DNA of 64,000 nt. It comes from a virus. The translations under genes and the position numbers were made by a program. How positions within the stretch are numbered: the first letter of the stretch is position 1; each line of letters opens with the position of its first letter. Shown here piece after piece: positions 44,484 to 49,790 of the stretch. The DNA is taken from positions 106,564 through 170,563 of IMG/VR virus record IMGVR_UViG_3300043788_000040; one strand, given 5' to 3'. Below the pieces are notes generated by a model. That model did no database searches. It was not told the origin of the DNA and saw only the letters and a program-made list of their open reading frames with translations.

Positions 44484-44638
44484 GCAGATGTCCAACATGC
44501 GGCACAGAATTTATTGAGGACATGTGTCCCACTGCGGTAGCGTACCGCAAGCGCCAGAAGGCACGTCGTGTGCGGGCAGCCAAGAAGGGTTGGCGGAAGA
44601 GGAAGAATGCCGGGCTATCACACAGTAGAAATCGCTAA
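44480..44638 (+). CDS. Small basic zinc-ribbon protein (52 aa)
   Basis: MSRCPTCGTEFIEDMCP... C-x2-C near the N-terminus followed by ~30 residues with about half Arg/Lys, suggesting nucleic-acid binding. Its 3' end overlaps the MazG-like gene by 32 bases. Confidence 0.55.
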   Translation: MSRCPTCGTEFIEDMCPTAVAYRKRQKARRVRAAKKGWRKRKNAGLSHSRNR

Positions 44639-44849
44639 GGGCGTCCTCGGCAAGAGCAGCAAGATTCAAGAGGAGCTTGACGAGCTTCTGGATGCTGAGA
44701 AGCAGGGTGTCAAGATTCTGATCCACTGCGAGCTTGCTGATCTTTACGGCGCTTTGCGTGAATACGCAGCAACCCACGGGCTGACGATGGAAGACTTGAG
44801 GGCTATGGTTGATCTGACCAAGAGCGCCTTTGAGCACGGAGAAAGATGA
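44607..44849 (+). CDS. MazG-like nucleotide pyrophosphohydrolase
   Basis: 80 aa. K-I-x-E-E-L-D-E-L-L-D-A then E-L-A-D-L-Y-G-A-L-R is the E-E-x-x-E ... E-x-x-D metal-binding pattern of all-alpha NTP pyrophosphatases. These remove pyrophosphate from (d)NTPs or related signal nucleotides. Single-domain phage form, consistent with nucleotide-pool cleaning. Confidence 0.75.
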   Translation: MPGYHTVEIAKGVLGKSSKIQEELDELLDAEKQGVKILIHCELADLYGALREYAATHGLTMEDLRAMVDLTKSAFEHGER

Positions 44850-45025
44850 AAACTCTCGCTCAAGAAATGGCGGAAGAGAACGACCGCCTCAACATGCGTA
44901 TCCGCTACCTCACCACCATGAAGGGCAAGACGTTCACGATGGGAGAGGCGCACGCCTTGTGCCAGCAGCGGGACGAAGAACTCAAAGCGCTGAAGGAAAA
45001 ATATGGCACTACCGAAATATCCTAA
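44846..45025 (+). CDS. Small coiled-coil protein (59 aa)
   Basis: MKTLAQEMAEENDRLNMRI... two charged helices around a short M-K-G-K-T-F-T-M-G-E strand. Overlaps both neighbours (4 and 23 bases). Confidence 0.6.
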   Translation: MKTLAQEMAEENDRLNMRIRYLTTMKGKTFTMGEAHALCQQRDEELKALKEKYGTTEIS

Positions 45026-45470
45026 CCGGGGCTTTCAACCCGAGAGGGTGACGTTTGACAGGCTTGTCGTCAGTATGGACGCGGCCGTCTCTGACGCCGT
45101 CCTGCACGATCTCGCCGCCGTGCATCGTGATATGCCACTGAGAATGAGCACCGTGTTTTCAGAGCACAGTTCTATTGCCCCTCACATGTTGTTTAGCATG
45201 CGTGCTTGGTTGCTGAAGAGCATGCACGTTGAGAAGGGTGCCCGGAAACCGTTCCTTGTTCCTAAGACGTGGTGGGATCACGCCAAGCATGACATGCTGG
45301 GCAGCCCGAACAAACGGGTGGTATGGTTCGCAAAGCTGTTCACCGCCCCGGAATACGACACGATATTCCAAGAGGAAATTTACGAGACTCGTGTCTGCCC
45401 ACATGACAACACCTACCTCCCCGAGGACAAGCAGCACATTGAGTACCTGCTGTGGAGAAACGATGAGTGA
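45003..45470 (+). CDS. Hypothetical protein (155 aa)
   Basis: GAAGGA upstream of the ATG. Helical, rich in His, Met and Trp, with C-P-H-D-N-T-Y and a central M-S-T-V-F-S-E-H. Unassigned. Confidence 0.65.
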   Translation: MALPKYPNRGFQPERVTFDRLVVSMDAAVSDAVLHDLAAVHRDMPLRMSTVFSEHSSIAPHMLFSMRAWLLKSMHVEKGARKPFLVPKTWWDHAKHDMLGSPNKRVVWFAKLFTAPEYDTIFQEEIYETRVCPHDNTYLPEDKQHIEYLLWRNDE

Positions 45471-45555
45471 CCTCCAACTCATGGCGTCAATCTCCGAGAT
45501 CGCCCTCGGGCTGGCAGTTTTGGCACGGGTTTGGAGCGTAATCAAATGGCGATAG
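45463..45555 (+). CDS. Microprotein with one hydrophobic helix (30 aa)
   Basis: MSDLQLMASISEIALGLAVL... then A-R-V-W-S-V-I-K-W-R. ATG overlaps the upstream end and the TAG lies inside the next gene. Single-helix membrane microprotein or coupling peptide. Confidence 0.45.
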   Translation: MSDLQLMASISEIALGLAVLARVWSVIKWR

Positions 45556-45755
45556 ACTGGAAGAAAGAACTAAACCTCATCAGACGATGCTGGTGGTGGT
45601 GGATGAAGGTAGGCTTCATCGCCGCCCCGTTCGGCGCAGTCTATGGATGCGTGACGGTGTACCTTGGGCACGAAAGCTTGTCAGTCCTGATCCCCCTCCT
45701 CGTCGCAGCCCTCCTCACCATCTACAAAATTCAGGGGATGCCTCCGATTGAGTGA
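45546..45755 (+). CDS. Small membrane protein (69 aa)
   Basis: W-W-W-W-M-K-V at the membrane edge, helix ~21-37 (VGFIAAPFGAVYGCVTV) and a second helix ~45-60. Unassigned; just upstream of the tRNA-synthetase-like gene. Confidence 0.6.
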   Translation: MAIDWKKELNLIRRCWWWWMKVGFIAAPFGAVYGCVTVYLGHESLSVLIPLLVAALLTIYKIQGMPPIE

Positions 45756-45772: not shown

Positions 45773-46438
45773 ATGAAGTATGTAGGCACACTTCAGTACG
45801 CACGACTTCTTGACGCACGGGAGTACTTTGAGAAGTATGGGTACAAGTTTGTGGATGCACCTTGGACAGTGTCACGTGAAGCAGTCCTCCTCACACGCCC
45901 GCCGTGGGTGCAGGGCGAGCCTTTCAGCTACGCCGCAGGCGGTGTGTTCCAGTTCCCAGTCGCTTCAGCAGAACAGTCTTTCATTCAGATGCAGATGGAT
46001 GCACGGGCAGCAGGCAGTCCGATCACCGGGAGTTACTGTGCCCTGACGCCGTGCTTTCGCAACGAGGCTATTCTCAACGACCTGCACCAGCCGTATTTCA
46101 TGAAGCTGGAACTGATCACGTGGGACGGAACGGAAGCCGACTTGAGCCGAATGATACAACTTGCACGTATTTGGTTTGAGAGCGAACACCCCGGAGATCA
46201 TCCCGGCGATGACTTGATGCTCAGCATAGTACCGAACAACGATGAGGACTCGCTTGGGGTGACGCAGGCTTACGACATCACCACCGCGTTCACCGGGATT
46301 GAGCTTGGAAGCTATGGGATCAGAGAACACGCCAAAGTTGGACGCTGGGTCTACGGCACAGGACTCGCCGAACCAAGATACAGCCTCGCGCTTGAAAAAG
46401 AAAAAGCGTTCAGAACCGCCGCACGGAGACCCTCGTAA
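45773..46438 (+). CDS. Class II aminoacyl-tRNA synthetase-like catalytic core
   Basis: 221 aa. Motif 1-like Y-F-E-K-Y-G-Y-K-F-V-D-A-P; motif 2 P-C-F-R-N-E followed by a loop and Q-P-Y-F-M-K-L-E-L-I; D-I-T-T-A-F-T-G-I-E-L-G-S-Y-G-I-R; motif 3 G-T-G-L-A-E-P-R-Y-S. The order and the G-I-E-L-G-S-x-x-I-R signature fit the Asp/Asn/Lys-tRNA synthetase and AsnA branch. The motif 2 and motif 3 arginines that hold ATP are present, so adenylate formation is plausible. There is no anticodon-binding domain, as in AsnA, EpmA and other synthetase paralogues. The substrate is unknown. Confidence 0.8.
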   Translation: MKYVGTLQYARLLDAREYFEKYGYKFVDAPWTVSREAVLLTRPPWVQGEPFSYAAGGVFQFPVASAEQSFIQMQMDARAAGSPITGSYCALTPCFRNEAILNDLHQPYFMKLELITWDGTEADLSRMIQLARIWFESEHPGDHPGDDLMLSIVPNNDEDSLGVTQAYDITTAFTGIELGSYGIREHAKVGRWVYGTGLAEPRYSLALEKEKAFRTAARRPS

Positions 46439-46748: not shown

Positions 46749-47498
46749 GTGAACAACTGGTACGACATCCTCGGCATGAGCCAAGTTGGTCATCGCCTCT
46801 TCGTGGGCGGATACGCCCGAGCAGCAGACCTAGCAAAGGACAACCCCCACAAGATTACTGCGGTTTTGTGCGTCCACCAAGCGATGGATTACCCCAAGAA
46901 CCCCGACATCGTTTACATGCACGTCCCCTTCGCTGACGGCGCGGGCATCCCACCCAAGGCTTTTGTCAAGTGCCTCGGCTGGCTGAAGCACATGTACGAG
47001 AGCGGGCACATAATCTACATTCACTGTGCCGCTGGCATCTCCCGGTCGGTAACGATCATGGCGTCCTTCATGCACTACGAAGGCATTGCAGACTTTAACG
47101 ATGCGCTTGACCAGATCAGGATGGTGCGCCCGAACGCCAGCCCTGCACCGAACGTGCTCAACTCCGCGAAGCAAATGCTTGGCGTGTACCCTTACGACGG
47201 GTCGTACGACTCCGAACCGGAGCACCAGAAGACCGTCCACAGCGACTTGATTGAACAAGTGCAGAACCGTCGTGCGGCCGAACAGCACCCGGACCCGAAC
47301 TGTCCAATGCGCCAGTTCCTCTTGTCCGGCGAAGAAAGCAACGTGCCACGCCACGAGATTCCGTGTTCCTGTACGCAGTTGCTTTCGGCTCTGGATCGAG
47401 CTAAGCTTGAGACAGCGAAGCAGAGAGAGATAAACGGGCCTCTGGGTGAACCCGTAGATTTCAACACGCTTCAGAGAAAAGTTGATGACGACGCCTGA
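46749..47498 (+). CDS. Dual-specificity (tyrosine) phosphatase
   Basis: GTG start (MNNWYDILGM...). Active-site loop H92-C-A-A-G-I-S-R-S (HCxxGxSRS), with the general-acid region around H58-V-P-F-A-D. Residues 1-150 are the phosphatase fold; the C-terminal 95 residues carry a C-P-M and a C-S-C and are not recognised. It could act on phosphoproteins or on RNA 5' triphosphates, as some members of the fold do. Overlaps the HD gene by 14 bases. Confidence 0.88.
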   Translation: MNNWYDILGMSQVGHRLFVGGYARAADLAKDNPHKITAVLCVHQAMDYPKNPDIVYMHVPFADGAGIPPKAFVKCLGWLKHMYESGHIIYIHCAAGISRSVTIMASFMHYEGIADFNDALDQIRMVRPNASPAPNVLNSAKQMLGVYPYDGSYDSEPEHQKTVHSDLIEQVQNRRAAEQHPDPNCPMRQFLLSGEESNVPRHEIPCSCTQLLSALDRAKLETAKQREINGPLGEPVDFNTLQRKVDDDA

Positions 47499-48120
47499 GC
47501 AAATTCTTGATGAAGCCTTTGAGACCGAGGGCGTTGCGCAGAACCACCGCGACGACATCAAGGACTACCTCCACATCCTGAAGAACCGTGATCCGAAGAC
47601 CTACGAGCACAGTATCCGTGTCGGCGTGCTCGCCAGCAAGATCGCCCTCTACGCCGCCAAGCCGGGAATAAGCGCCAAAATGATGCTCTGGGCAGGCTTG
47701 CTGCACGACATCGGCAAGACCCTGGTACCGCCTGGTGTCCTGACCAAGACGACGAACTTTACACCGGAAGACTACGCTGCCATGGAGCCGCACGTGAAGT
47801 ACGGCTGGGACATGCTCAACAGCGTCCACGACTGGACGGCGCACGTCATCGTCCGGCACCACCAATTCGGTCCCCATCCTTACCCCGCCGTGCTCCCGCC
47901 CCTCCCCGAGTACCTTCAAGCCAAAGCTGAGCTAATCCAGACCGCTGCCCGCCTGCTTGCTATGGCTGATTACTATGACGCCTTGACGAGCCGGGGCAAC
48001 GACAAGAACGGGAAGAAGCCCCTGACTCCCAGCGAGCGCCGGGAAATCTACATGCGGGACAACGCTGACCAGAAGGAACTTGCCGAGCTTCTTGAGTCCA
48101 TGGGTGTGCTAAAATTCTGA
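47485..48120 (+). CDS. HD-GYP-like phosphohydrolase
   Basis: 211 aa. E-H42-S-x-R-V, L-L-H74-D-I-G-K, R-H-H-Q and M-A-D-Y-Y-D-A-L-T form the HD-GYP arrangement, but the GYP tripeptide itself is missing: the sequence after H-H-Q is F-G-P. HD-GYP enzymes hydrolyse cyclic dinucleotides, and phage versions are candidates for degrading host defence signals; this is inference. ATG 47485 preferred over TTG 47482. Confidence 0.82.
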   Translation: MTTPEQILDEAFETEGVAQNHRDDIKDYLHILKNRDPKTYEHSIRVGVLASKIALYAAKPGISAKMMLWAGLLHDIGKTLVPPGVLTKTTNFTPEDYAAMEPHVKYGWDMLNSVHDWTAHVIVRHHQFGPHPYPAVLPPLPEYLQAKAELIQTAARLLAMADYYDALTSRGNDKNGKKPLTPSERREIYMRDNADQKELAELLESMGVLKF

Positions 48121-48140: not shown

Positions 48141-48572
48141 ATGAGTGAAGTTTGTCCTAAGTGCGGTGAGACCGATCTGTCTAAGTTCTCCAAGAATAAG
48201 AGACGACCTAACGGATACCAAGGTTACTGCAAGATTTGCATGAAGGATTATCGTGCTAATTGGCTAGCGCGAAATCCGGACCAGACAGCCATACGGTTTG
48301 GAAGAAGACTCGCTTCTTGGCAAAAGCGGGGCGTGAGCATCACGAAAGAAGTGTATGACGGAATGCTCAGCAAGCAGCAAAATCTGTGTGCTCTCTGCCA
48401 TGAACCGTTTGACGAACCACAAGCGCCTGCGGTAGACCATGATCACATTACGGGGAAAGTTCGGGCTTTACTACATAAACGCTGCAATGCGGCTATTGGG
48501 TTTTTGGGTGATGACCCTAAAAAAGTCCGTTGTGCGTTGGAGTATCTGGAAAGCCATCTACAAAAGCCATAG
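48141..48572 (+). CDS. Recombination endonuclease VII-like HNH protein
   Basis: 143 aa. An N-terminal zinc ribbon (C-P-K-C ... C-K-I-C) precedes C-A-L-C-H-E-P-F, V-D-H-D-H-I-T-G-K-V-R-A-L-L-H-K-R-C-N-A-A-I-G-F-L-G-D-D-P. This is the treble-clef HNH core of the T4 endonuclease VII group, which cuts branched DNA; related proteins are also mobile. Its AT-rich codons at the start differ somewhat from the neighbours, which fits a mobile gene. Separate promoter. Confidence 0.87.
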   Translation: MSEVCPKCGETDLSKFSKNKRRPNGYQGYCKICMKDYRANWLARNPDQTAIRFGRRLASWQKRGVSITKEVYDGMLSKQQNLCALCHEPFDEPQAPAVDHDHITGKVRALLHKRCNAAIGFLGDDPKKVRCALEYLESHLQKP

Positions 48573-48585
48573 TAGGGGAAATCCT

Positions 48586-49056
48586 ATGGCTATTGAAGTC
48601 AAAGCGCCCGGAAAGTACGACGCCTCAGCGCGTTATACGATCTTTTTGGCCGGAGCCATTGACCAAGGGAAGGCGGAGGACTGGCAGGCAAAGGTCGCTC
48701 GTGCCCTTGATTCATTTGACATTACCATCCTGAACCCCCGCCGTGACGACTGGGACCCAAGCTGGGATCAATCCGCCGACAACCCCGAGTTCGCCAAGCA
48801 GGTAAACTGGGAGCTTGACGCACAGGAAGCGGCCGACATGGTGATCTTCGTGTTCACCAAGGACAGTAAGGCTCCGATCACCTTTCTTGAGTTCGGGCTA
48901 TTCGCCCCGAAAAAGGACGCTATCGTCTGCGCCGAGGAAGGCTTCTACCGGATCGGCAACCTTGACATCGTCGCCGAGCGCCACAAGGTTCCGATGTACC
49001 ACAATTTGGACGAGATGATCGCCGACCTGCAAACCGTTCTGAGGGAGAAGGTCTGA
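48586..49056 (+). CDS. Nucleoside 2-deoxyribosyltransferase-like protein
   Basis: 156 aa, AGGGGA upstream. I-F-L-A-G-A-I, I-L-N-P-R-R-D-D-W-D, W-E-L-D-A-Q-E-A-A-D-M-V-I-F-V-F and T-F-L-E-F-G-L-F are landmarks of the nucleoside deoxyribosyltransferase-like family (Rossmann-like, Glu nucleophile region present). True members exchange bases on deoxynucleosides; phage relatives may cleave nucleotide-derived signals or NAD-type molecules. Overlaps the next start by one base. Confidence 0.8.
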   Translation: MAIEVKAPGKYDASARYTIFLAGAIDQGKAEDWQAKVARALDSFDITILNPRRDDWDPSWDQSADNPEFAKQVNWELDAQEAADMVIFVFTKDSKAPITFLEFGLFAPKKDAIVCAEEGFYRIGNLDIVAERHKVPMYHNLDEMIADLQTVLREKV

Positions 49057-49790
49057 TGGCCGAAACAGTCTACGTGCTGATGAGCCAAGAAGGCTCCGGC
49101 AAGAACAAGATGTGGCGTCCCGTTGCCGTGGTGTCCAACCCGGACCTCGCGACCCAGTGGATGGAGTACGGCAAGGACGTGGACTGGGTTCCTCTCGAAC
49201 TTGACGAGGTCAAGAACATCTCGCCGGGAAACACGCCCTCTTTCCACGCCCGCGAGACCACGCCAGGCGAAGCAAAAGCGACTGAACTGAGCGAGCGGAT
49301 GGACGCAACGATTGAGCGGATGCAGAAAATCATTGACGATCAAGCGAAGCTCATCAAGAAGCTGATGAAGGGAAAGCAGGGCGCAGCCGAAGACTCAACG
49401 CCGCCGAAGCCCTCCGGCTTCGCTGAGCGCCTGAATAATGGCGATGAGATAGCCGACTACATAGAGACATGGGCAGGCTACCCCGTTGATAACGAATTTG
49501 TGAGTGAACGGTTTCGTGACCATCATGCTGAATTGAAGCTCTTGCCCATCACGGAGATAAAGCCGGGCTGGCAGGGCGCGAACGTGCGGAACCCAGCGAA
49601 CGAGCGCAAGTATCAACGCATGAGTGTGAAGACGATCCCGCCGATACTCGTACAGGACGGCGTGATTGTAGACGGGCATCACAGGTTCCGCGCTGCCCAG
49701 AAGCGTGGCTTGACTCACCTGTGGGCGTATGTAGTAGACTGGGACAAGGGAGATGAACATGGTGACAGTAACGTCAACGGCAGCCGCTAA
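49056..49790 (+). CDS. ParB/Srx-like nuclease-domain protein
   Basis: 244 aa. The N-terminal ~70 residues are a separate small domain, then a coiled-coil linker (M-D-A-T-I-E-R-M-Q-K-I-I). The C-terminal half has L-L-P-I-T-E-I-K-P and I-V-D-G-H-H-R-F-R-A-A-Q-K-R-G, the ParB/sulfiredoxin-fold signature (DGxHRxxAA). Phage ParB-like proteins can be CTPases, nucleases or DNA modifiers. Overlaps the Fe-S carrier gene by 38 bases. Confidence 0.8.
   Translation: MAETVYVLMSQEGSGKNKMWRPVAVVSNPDLATQWMEYGKDVDWVPLELDEVKNISPGNTPSFHARETTPGEAKATELSERMDATIERMQKIIDDQAKLIKKLMKGKQGAAEDSTPPKPSGFAERLNNGDEIADYIETWAGYPVDNEFVSERFRDHHAELKLLPITEIKPGWQGANVRNPANERKYQRMSVKTIPPILVQDGVIVDGHHRFRAAQKRGLTHLWAYVVDWDKGDEHGDSNVNGSR

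What the first reader, a model, noticed from the sequence alone, without database searches (positions are those of the whole stretch)
45773..46438. Stand-alone class II tRNA-synthetase core in a phage
Seen: motifs 1, 2 and 3 and an AspRS/AsnA-like G-I-E-L-G-S-x-x-I-R segment within 221 aa, and no anticodon-binding domain. Known: such minimal paralogues include AsnA (asparagine synthesis) and EpmA (protein modification). Inference: it could charge an amino acid onto a small molecule, a protein, or the tRNA-like RNA at 20.2 kb, or act as asparagine synthetase. It has its own promoter-like start.
Basis: partly seen in the sequence, partly recalled or inferred. Interest (0 to 1): 0.72.

Follow-up and report, generated by a model that had tools for sequence, protein, structure and literature searches.

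The report
Phage SerRS-like core with MazG partner
The gene encodes a very small enzyme built like the catalytic centre of the enzyme that loads serine onto tRNA, but without the tRNA-holding parts; nearly every virus that has it, and some tiny archaea and bacteria, also carries a small nucleotide-cleaving (MazG-like) protein next to it or fused to it, so the two probably form one unknown amino-acid-plus-nucleotide pathway.

Summary
The ORF at 45773-46438 has class II motifs, a confident SerRS-core fold (AlphaFold pLDDT 93; Z about 20 to SerRS) and no tRNA-binding domain. It belongs to phrog_4806, a phage family found in at least 262 phage records. The family is closest to SerRS, not to AsnA, EpmA, AspRS or HisRS; the PHROG name 'histidyl tRNA synthetase' looks wrong. 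The SerRS ATP, metal and amino-group residues are invariant in 80 of 80 diverse members.

New here: in 99 of 100 loci (about 50 unrelated gene contexts) a small MazG-like protein (phrog_6408, intact EExxE/ExxD metal motif) lies on the same strand within 1.5 kb. It is fused to the enzyme in Microcystis phages and in DPANN/CPR cellular genomes. The window's copy is at 44607-44849. In DPANN archaea the fusion forms an operon with a short radical SAM protein found in no other sampled genome of that phylum.

Best reading: an obligate amino-acid-activating plus NTP-pyrophosphohydrolase module, probably not a tRNA charger, most likely making an aminoacylated nucleotide or similar small molecule. The acceptor is inferred. 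DNA hypermodification is disfavoured: phi92-like carriers are very restriction-sensitive.

The parts
45773..46438 (+). SerRS-like stand-alone class II catalytic core (phrog_4806), 221 aa
44607..44849 (+). MazG/PRA-PH-like small protein (phrog_6408), 80 aa, conserved partner; EExxE and ExxD metal motifs intact; the only copy in the 170.6-kb record
   Evidence: phrog_6408 E=3e-26; PF01503 22.1 bits, cut-off 21.3
45860..45862 (+). motif 1 proline P30 (76/80 members)
   Evidence: aligns to P196 of E. coli SerRS
45965..45973 (+). S65-A-E67: counterpart of the SerRS TxE motif (T237, E239 of E. coli SerRS); S and E invariant
46046..46066 (+). motif 2 strand T92-P-C-F-R96-N-E98 (R96 invariant, = R268 of E. 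coli SerRS)
46097..46111 (+). motif 2 return strand F109-M-K111-L-E113 (invariant F, K, E = F287, K289, E291)
46295..46324 (+). GIELGSYGIR (175-184): E177 and S180 invariant = E355 and S358 of E. coli SerRS (metal ligands in SerRS, from general knowledge)
46352..46378 (+). motif 3 Y194-G-T196-G-L-A-E-P-R202 (T196, R202 invariant; Y194 replaces N389 of SerRS)
44846..45755 (+). three short ORFs between the MazG-like and SerRS-like genes (44846-45025, 45003-45470, 45531-45755); the two tested (45003-45470 and 45552-45755) have no PHROG match

Best explanation
The gene encodes a catalytically intact, arm-less SerRS-like enzyme that activates a small amino acid (Ser, Gly, Ala or similar) as aminoacyl-AMP. 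It works as one system with the small MazG/PRA-PH-like nucleotide pyrophosphohydrolase encoded at 44607-44849. Steps: (1) amino acid + ATP gives aminoacyl-AMP + PPi (strongly inferred from invariant residues and fold); (2) the MazG-like partner cleaves a nucleoside triphosphate or similar nucleotide to the monophosphate (inferred from its invariant metal motif); (3) the aminoacyl group is passed to a small acceptor, most likely the nucleotide the partner produces, giving an aminoacylated nucleotide (inference only, by logic like the MazZ-PurZ pair of Z-DNA phages). It is not a tRNA synthetase in the ordinary sense. Shown: family, fold, intact residues, near-universal pairing, fusion. Inferred: the reaction, the amino acid, the acceptor. 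The core claim (amino-acid-activating SerRS-like enzyme coupled to the MazG-like partner, not charging tRNA) I hold at about 0.7; the confidence below is for the whole chain with a nucleotide acceptor.
For: Fold and residues: model pLDDT 93.4, SerRS best by Foldseek, VIA and profile; the SerRS ATP/metal/amino-group residues conserved in 80/80. No tRNA-binding arm or anticodon domain. Partner: MazG-like within 1425 nt, same strand, in 99/100 loci, median gap 14 nt, about 50 distinct gene contexts, upstream, downstream or fused; the remaining locus (Acj61) keeps a 32-aa remnant. Independent count: 260 phage records carry the partner against 262-272 with the enzyme, in the same genera, including phage G gp286-gp287. 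Fusion in Microcystis phages and in 5 of 236 DPANN genomes plus a CPR genome. Metal motif of the partner invariant. Distances of the two proteins co-vary (Spearman 0.22, 2/1000 permutations). Cellular neighbours are nucleotide or radical-SAM enzymes: radical SAM, AAA_28/uridine-kinase-like, NUDIX.
Against: No activity was measured. The acceptor is not identified. Motif 2 Glu (E98) varies in the family and SerRS N389 is Tyr, so the amino acid may not be serine. Some phage copies lie in tRNA clusters or beside translation genes (CcrSC, Vibrio 2.275.O, phi92 YqeY-like gene), which suits a tRNA role. The MazG-like domain is remote from solved MazG proteins (best true relatives E=0.07-0.08). The co-variation signal is modest.
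Confidence: 0.4

Rival explanations
1. It modifies a protein, like EpmA (with EpmB) or an amino acid:carrier-protein ligase: the activated, perhaps radical-SAM-altered, amino acid is placed on a protein target.
For: In DPANN archaea and a CPR genome the fusion sits in an operon with a short radical SAM protein that occurs only in genomes with the fusion, which recalls EpmA plus the radical SAM enzyme EpmB. Arm-less SerRS relatives that aminoacylate carrier proteins are known (PMC9437257).
Against: Phages lack that radical SAM gene. Profile similarity to EpmA is weak (8%). The small partner is MazG-like, without an invariant Ser for phosphopantetheine; the enzyme has only one invariant Cys, not the Zn ligands of aa:CP ligases. 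A nucleotide pyrophosphohydrolase is not explained.
Confidence: 0.17
2. It acts on tRNA or a tRNA-like RNA, for example placing an amino acid on a tRNA or modified base in the way of GluQ-RS.
For: Some copies lie in tRNA arrays or near tRNA-processing genes; the closest family is a tRNA synthetase.
Against: No tRNA-binding arm; short motif 2 loop; the window has no tRNA gene and only a sub-threshold tRNA-like match at 20.2 kb; the constant partner is MazG-like, not tRNA-related.
Confidence: 0.17
3. It makes or tunes a nucleotide alarmone (Ap4A-type dinucleotide polyphosphate), the MazG-like partner degrading or shaping the nucleotide pool.
For: Class II synthetases including SerRS can make Ap4A (general knowledge); the MazG fold hydrolyses nucleoside triphosphates; the pair is fused in some genomes.
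Against: Ordinary host synthetases already make Ap4A; nothing in the neighbourhood points to Ap4A specifically.
Confidence: 0.1
4. It supplies an amino-acid-modified dNMP for hypermodified phage DNA.
For: The MazG-plus-ligase logic matches MazZ-PurZ (PMC8342488); several copies lie beside thymidylate synthase, RNR or dNMP kinase.
Against: phi92-like phages, which carry the pair, are exceptionally sensitive to restriction-modification (PMC8594841). Cellular copies exist.
Confidence: 0.06
5. Asparagine synthetase A-like enzyme.
For: The short GIELGSYGIR segment resembles FELSSMGIR of E. coli AsnA.
Against: hhalign probability with AsnA is 0.6% over 12 columns; the same segment aligns to SerRS REISSC; the SerRS-type S-x-E and motif 3 are present.
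Confidence: 0.02

Closest known systems
Seryl-tRNA synthetase (catalytic core)
   Same: fold, order of motifs, S/T-x-E, R, F, K-x-E, E-x-x-S, T/S and R of motif 3
   Different: no N-terminal tRNA-binding arm, shorter core (about 190 aa), N389 replaced by Tyr, MazG-like partner
phrog_4806 ('histidyl tRNA synthetase'; also annotated 'putative seryl-tRNA synthetase')
   Same: this is its family (E=3e-34)
   Different: the HisRS name is not supported (hhalign 0.4%); the pairing with phrog_6408 is not noted in the PHROG label or in the papers found
Amino acid:[carrier protein] ligases
   Same: class II SerRS-like cores without a tRNA-binding domain (PMC9437257)
   Different: no Zn-ligand cysteines, no adjacent carrier protein with a phosphopantetheine Ser
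EpmA/EpmB (EF-P modification)
   Same: class II core plus, in the archaeal operons, a radical SAM protein
   Different: weak sequence similarity (8%), MazG-like domain, no radical SAM partner in phages
MazZ-PurZ of Z-DNA phages
   Same: a MazG-type pyrophosphohydrolase coupled to an ATP-dependent enzyme that joins an amino acid to a nucleotide
   Different: ligase fold is SerRS-like, not adenylosuccinate synthetase; carriers appear restriction-sensitive
MazG / phosphoribosyl-ATP pyrophosphohydrolase superfamily (for phrog_6408)
   Same: EExxE...ExxD metal motif, all-helical, PF01503 at cut-off for the window protein
   Different: very short (about 80 aa), extra invariant GYH and AFxxGxR motifs

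Membership tests
Class II aminoacyl-tRNA synthetase catalytic fold | motifs 1, 2 and 3 with motif 2 Arg and motif 3 Arg | tested here: met
   P30 76/80; R96 and R202 80/80
Class II aminoacyl-tRNA synthetase catalytic fold | antiparallel class II core fold | tested here: met
   pLDDT 93.4; SerRS Z 20.3, 206 residues, 3.4 A
Seryl-tRNA synthetase | closest profile among class II families | tested here: met
Seryl-tRNA synthetase | TxE and E-x-x-S active-site residues | tested here: met
   S65/E67 and E177/S180 invariant and aligned to T237/E239 and E355/S358
Seryl-tRNA synthetase | N-terminal coiled-coil tRNA-binding arm | tested here: not met
   221 aa, all of it in the catalytic core
Seryl-tRNA synthetase | serine activation and tRNA charging | not testable with these tools
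   needs enzyme assay
Asparagine synthetase A | profile similarity to AsnA | tested here: not met
   hhalign 0.6%, 12 columns
EpmA | profile similarity to EpmA/LysRS | tested here: not met
   8% against 94% for SerRS
EpmA | modifies EF-P | not testable with these tools
   -
Amino acid:[carrier protein] ligase | Zn site with two Cys and a Glu | tested here: not met
   only C94 is an invariant Cys in 80 members; the Zn site itself is from general knowledge
Amino acid:[carrier protein] ligase | adjacent carrier protein with a phosphopantetheine Ser | tested here: not met
   neighbour phrog_6408 has no invariant Ser; it has EExxE/ExxD
Histidyl-tRNA synthetase / HisZ (PHROG name) | profile similarity to HisRS | tested here: not met
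   hhalign 0.4%; fold similar but second to SerRS
MazG/PRA-PH superfamily (phrog_6408 partner) | EExxE and ExxD metal-binding motifs | tested here: met
   invariant in all complete copies
MazG/PRA-PH superfamily (phrog_6408 partner) | profile match to the family | tested here: met
   PF01503 22.1 bits, cut-off 21.3, for the window protein; other copies just below the cut-off
MazG/PRA-PH superfamily (phrog_6408 partner) | nucleoside triphosphate pyrophosphohydrolase activity | not testable with these tools
   -

The most novel reading that the evidence does not exclude
The SerRS-like/MazG-like pair is a widespread two-enzyme pathway, mobile between large phages, DPANN archaea and CPR bacteria, that makes an aminoacylated nucleotide not yet described: a metabolite, signal or counter-defence molecule made by what would be one of the smallest natural class II amino-acid-activating enzymes (size comparison from general knowledge).
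Probability: 0.3. Interest if true: 0.85.

Novelty: new variant of a known kind. Interest (0 to 1): 0.62.

Why it matters
Hundreds of phage genomes carry this gene under a misleading 'histidyl-' or 'seryl-tRNA synthetase' label. Its near-perfect linkage to a MazG-like protein, with natural fusions, turns an orphan annotation into a defined two-protein system that can be tested in laboratory E. coli phages (phi92-like members of the BASEL collection). If the pair makes an aminoacylated nucleotide, it would be a new branch of aminoacyl-tRNA-synthetase-derived chemistry, shared by viruses and ultra-small cells.

Tried and rejected
Single-sequence scan of viral contigs found nothing; a 15-member alignment found 131. 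One bacterial/archaeal scan gave only 4 loci; profile search of DPANN and CPR genomes gave more. Flanking-gene clustering: apart from MazG, frequent neighbours (RNR, glutaredoxin, dNMP kinase, helicase, NAMPT, metallophosphatase) seem to come largely from one or two phage lineages, so they were not taken as part of the module. An upstream ORF in three loci (L003, L006, L011) was first aligned as MazG by position and proved unrelated; the true copy lies elsewhere or is fused. The RF-1-like tail of the L051 MazG protein is below cut-off and was not used. No paper found links the two families; the Citromicrobium phage RXM paper names both genes but separately (PMC8953757). Plasmids: no match. aa:CP ligases are not among the 50 listed structure matches; this does not exclude kinship.

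Full report
CHECK. The ORF at 45773-46438 (+) is 221 codons from ATG. It matches phrog_4806 at E=3e-34 and, by tblastn, 272 phage records, 262 of them over at least 80% of its length, all under 60% identity. It is the only such gene in the 170,563-base virus record that holds the window. The class II motifs are present.

WHAT IT IS. AlphaFold2 on an alignment of 71 sequences (window and fetched loci) gives pLDDT 93.4 and pTM 0.90. Foldseek ranks SerRS first (E=1.7e-9); VIA-align gives Z 20.3 over 206 residues at 3.4 A to human mitochondrial SerRS and 19.5 to T. thermophilus SerRS, with HisRS next at 19.0-17.9. A profile of 80 members finds SerRS at 7.7e-8 in the PDB, PylRS at 0.007 and AspRS at 0.02. 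Profile comparison with single E. coli proteins gives probability 94% for SerRS, 64% AspRS, 8% EpmA, 0.6% AsnA and 0.4% HisRS. It is therefore a stand-alone SerRS-like core; the database name 'histidyl tRNA synthetase' is not supported, while the older 'putative seryl-tRNA synthetase' is right about the fold, not necessarily about the function.

ACTIVE SITE. Aligned to E. coli SerRS, the members keep S65/E67 (T237/E239, the TxE motif), R96 (R268), F109 (F287), K111 (K289), E113 (E291), E177 and S180 (E355, S358), T196 (S391) and R202 (R397); all are invariant in 80/80. From general knowledge of SerRS these residues bind ATP, the metal ions and the amino group of the substrate. Two differences matter: motif 2 Glu (E98 here) is missing in some members, and N389 of SerRS is Tyr in 75/80. 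The amino acid is therefore probably small but not certainly serine. The tRNA-binding arm is absent and the motif 2 loop is short.

THE PARTNER. A protein of about 80 residues, phrog_6408 ('unknown function'), lies beside the gene in nearly all carriers; phi92 gp197 was already noted as MazG-like by its annotators. A profile found it in 99 of 100 loci, always on the same strand, at most 1425 nt away, median gap 14 nt; 46 loci have it directly upstream, 33 upstream with a longer gap, 13 downstream, 6 fused at the C-terminus. (The 100 loci include the window, and a short extract of its own record was left out of the second count.) The exception, Acj61, keeps a 32-aa remnant next to the gene. Grouping loci by shared flanking genes leaves 50 contexts, so this is not the synteny of one phage lineage. 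Independently, tblastn with the phi92 partner finds 260 phage records with almost the same genus counts as the enzyme (Escherichia 110/109, Caulobacter 12/12, Pectobacterium 10/10, Cronobacter 8/8); its weakest listed hit, Bacillus phage G gp286, is directly before gp287, the enzyme. In the window the partner is at 44607-44849 (phrog_6408 E=3e-26, PF01503 above cut-off) and is the only copy in the record; the window's nearest relatives L016 and L017 show the same spaced order. Its EExxE and ExxD residues, and a GYH and an AFxxGxR motif, are invariant or nearly so. Distances of the two proteins co-vary modestly across contexts (Spearman 0.22, 2 of 1000 permutations).

EXTRA DOMAINS. In five loci the MazG-like domain carries an N-terminal cupin (phrog_4784, weakly phrog_4786 'cysteine dioxygenase'; model pLDDT 91, cupin matches Z about 11.8). 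In L068 the cupin is a separate gene between the two, and Caulobacter and PB1-like Pseudomonas phages have it elsewhere. It is treated as an accessory.

CELLULAR COPIES. A scan of 84,980 species gave four loci; three of them (L096, L097, L098) sit among cellular genes. A profile search found the enzyme-MazG fusion in 5 of 236 genomes of the phylum of the Woesearchaeota MAG and the family in 3 of 332 of the phylum of L096. In four of the five archaeal loci the fusion is followed, with overlapping ends, by a 221-228-aa radical SAM protein, and all five have a divergent HTH-like gene; a CPR genome has the radical SAM gene just before its fusion. That radical SAM family was found in exactly four of the 236 genomes, all with the fusion, and not convincingly in phages. 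Two genomes of the L096 phylum have instead a P-loop kinase with a CYTH-like part (my reading of the sequence) and an HTH-NUDIX protein. That these phyla are DPANN and CPR is my reading of the organism names and gene content; the genomes themselves are unnamed. In the tree five fusions form one clade (95/89) and other cellular copies lie among viral ones, so several transfers are likely. These genomes are metagenome-assembled, so misbinning cannot be excluded for single cases.

MECHANISM. Shown by sequence and structure prediction: a complete amino-acid-activating site, no tRNA-binding parts, a nearly obligate nucleotide-pyrophosphohydrolase-like partner. Inferred: activation of a small amino acid and transfer to a small acceptor. 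The partner suggests that acceptor or substrate is a nucleotide, as in the MazZ-PurZ pair (PMC8342488). Against a DNA-modification use, phi92-like phages are described as exceptionally susceptible to restriction-modification (PMC8594841). Rivals are protein modification in the manner of EpmA/EpmB or aa:CP ligases (reviewed in PMC9437257), an RNA acceptor, and dinucleotide polyphosphates.

VERDICT. The enzyme family is known as an annotation; its near-obligate module, fusions and archaeal operon were not found described in the papers available here. The pathway's product is unknown and testable.

Noticed in passing
window 20219-20285 (+): Sub-threshold tRNA match (Rfam RF00005, 20 bits against a cut-off of 29, E=0.31); ARAGORN calls no tRNA. 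Could be a decayed tRNA.
   Followed up: partly
L026, L034, L042, L073, L087; separate gene in L068 9436-9999: Cupin domain (phrog_4784, weakly cysteine-dioxygenase-like) fused to or lying beside the MazG-like partner; free-standing relatives in PB1-like Pseudomonas phages.
   Followed up: partly
L124, L126, L127, L128, L129: DPANN/CPR operon: divergent HTH regulator (archaeal loci), SerRS-like/MazG-like fusion, short radical SAM protein found in no other sampled genome of the archaeal phylum.
   Followed up: yes
L130 8946-10130, L131 8555-9733 and the HTH-NUDIX genes beside them: In two genomes of the phylum of the L096 MAG the pair neighbours a P-loop kinase joined to a CYTH-like part and an HTH-NUDIX protein.
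   Followed up: partly
L051 9309-9992: MazG-like partner with a C-terminal stretch that weakly resembles the RF-1 release-factor domain (below cut-off).
   Followed up: no
window 46749-47498, 47482-48120, 48141-48572, 48586-49056, 49056-49790: Downstream genes: dual-specificity-phosphatase-like, HD-domain-like (by eye), endonuclease VII-like, phrog_30579 (reads like a nucleoside deoxyribosyltransferase), ParB-like.
   Followed up: partly
PHROG phrog_4806 and GenBank records using it: The family is labelled 'histidyl tRNA synthetase', yet SerRS is by far the nearest family; the wrong name has spread to many phage records.
   Followed up: yes
Microcystis aeruginosa PCC7806 plasmid, gene 1 (PMC12510456): A plasmid gene described as a putative seryl-tRNA synthetase may belong to this family; its sequence was not tested here.
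   Followed up: no
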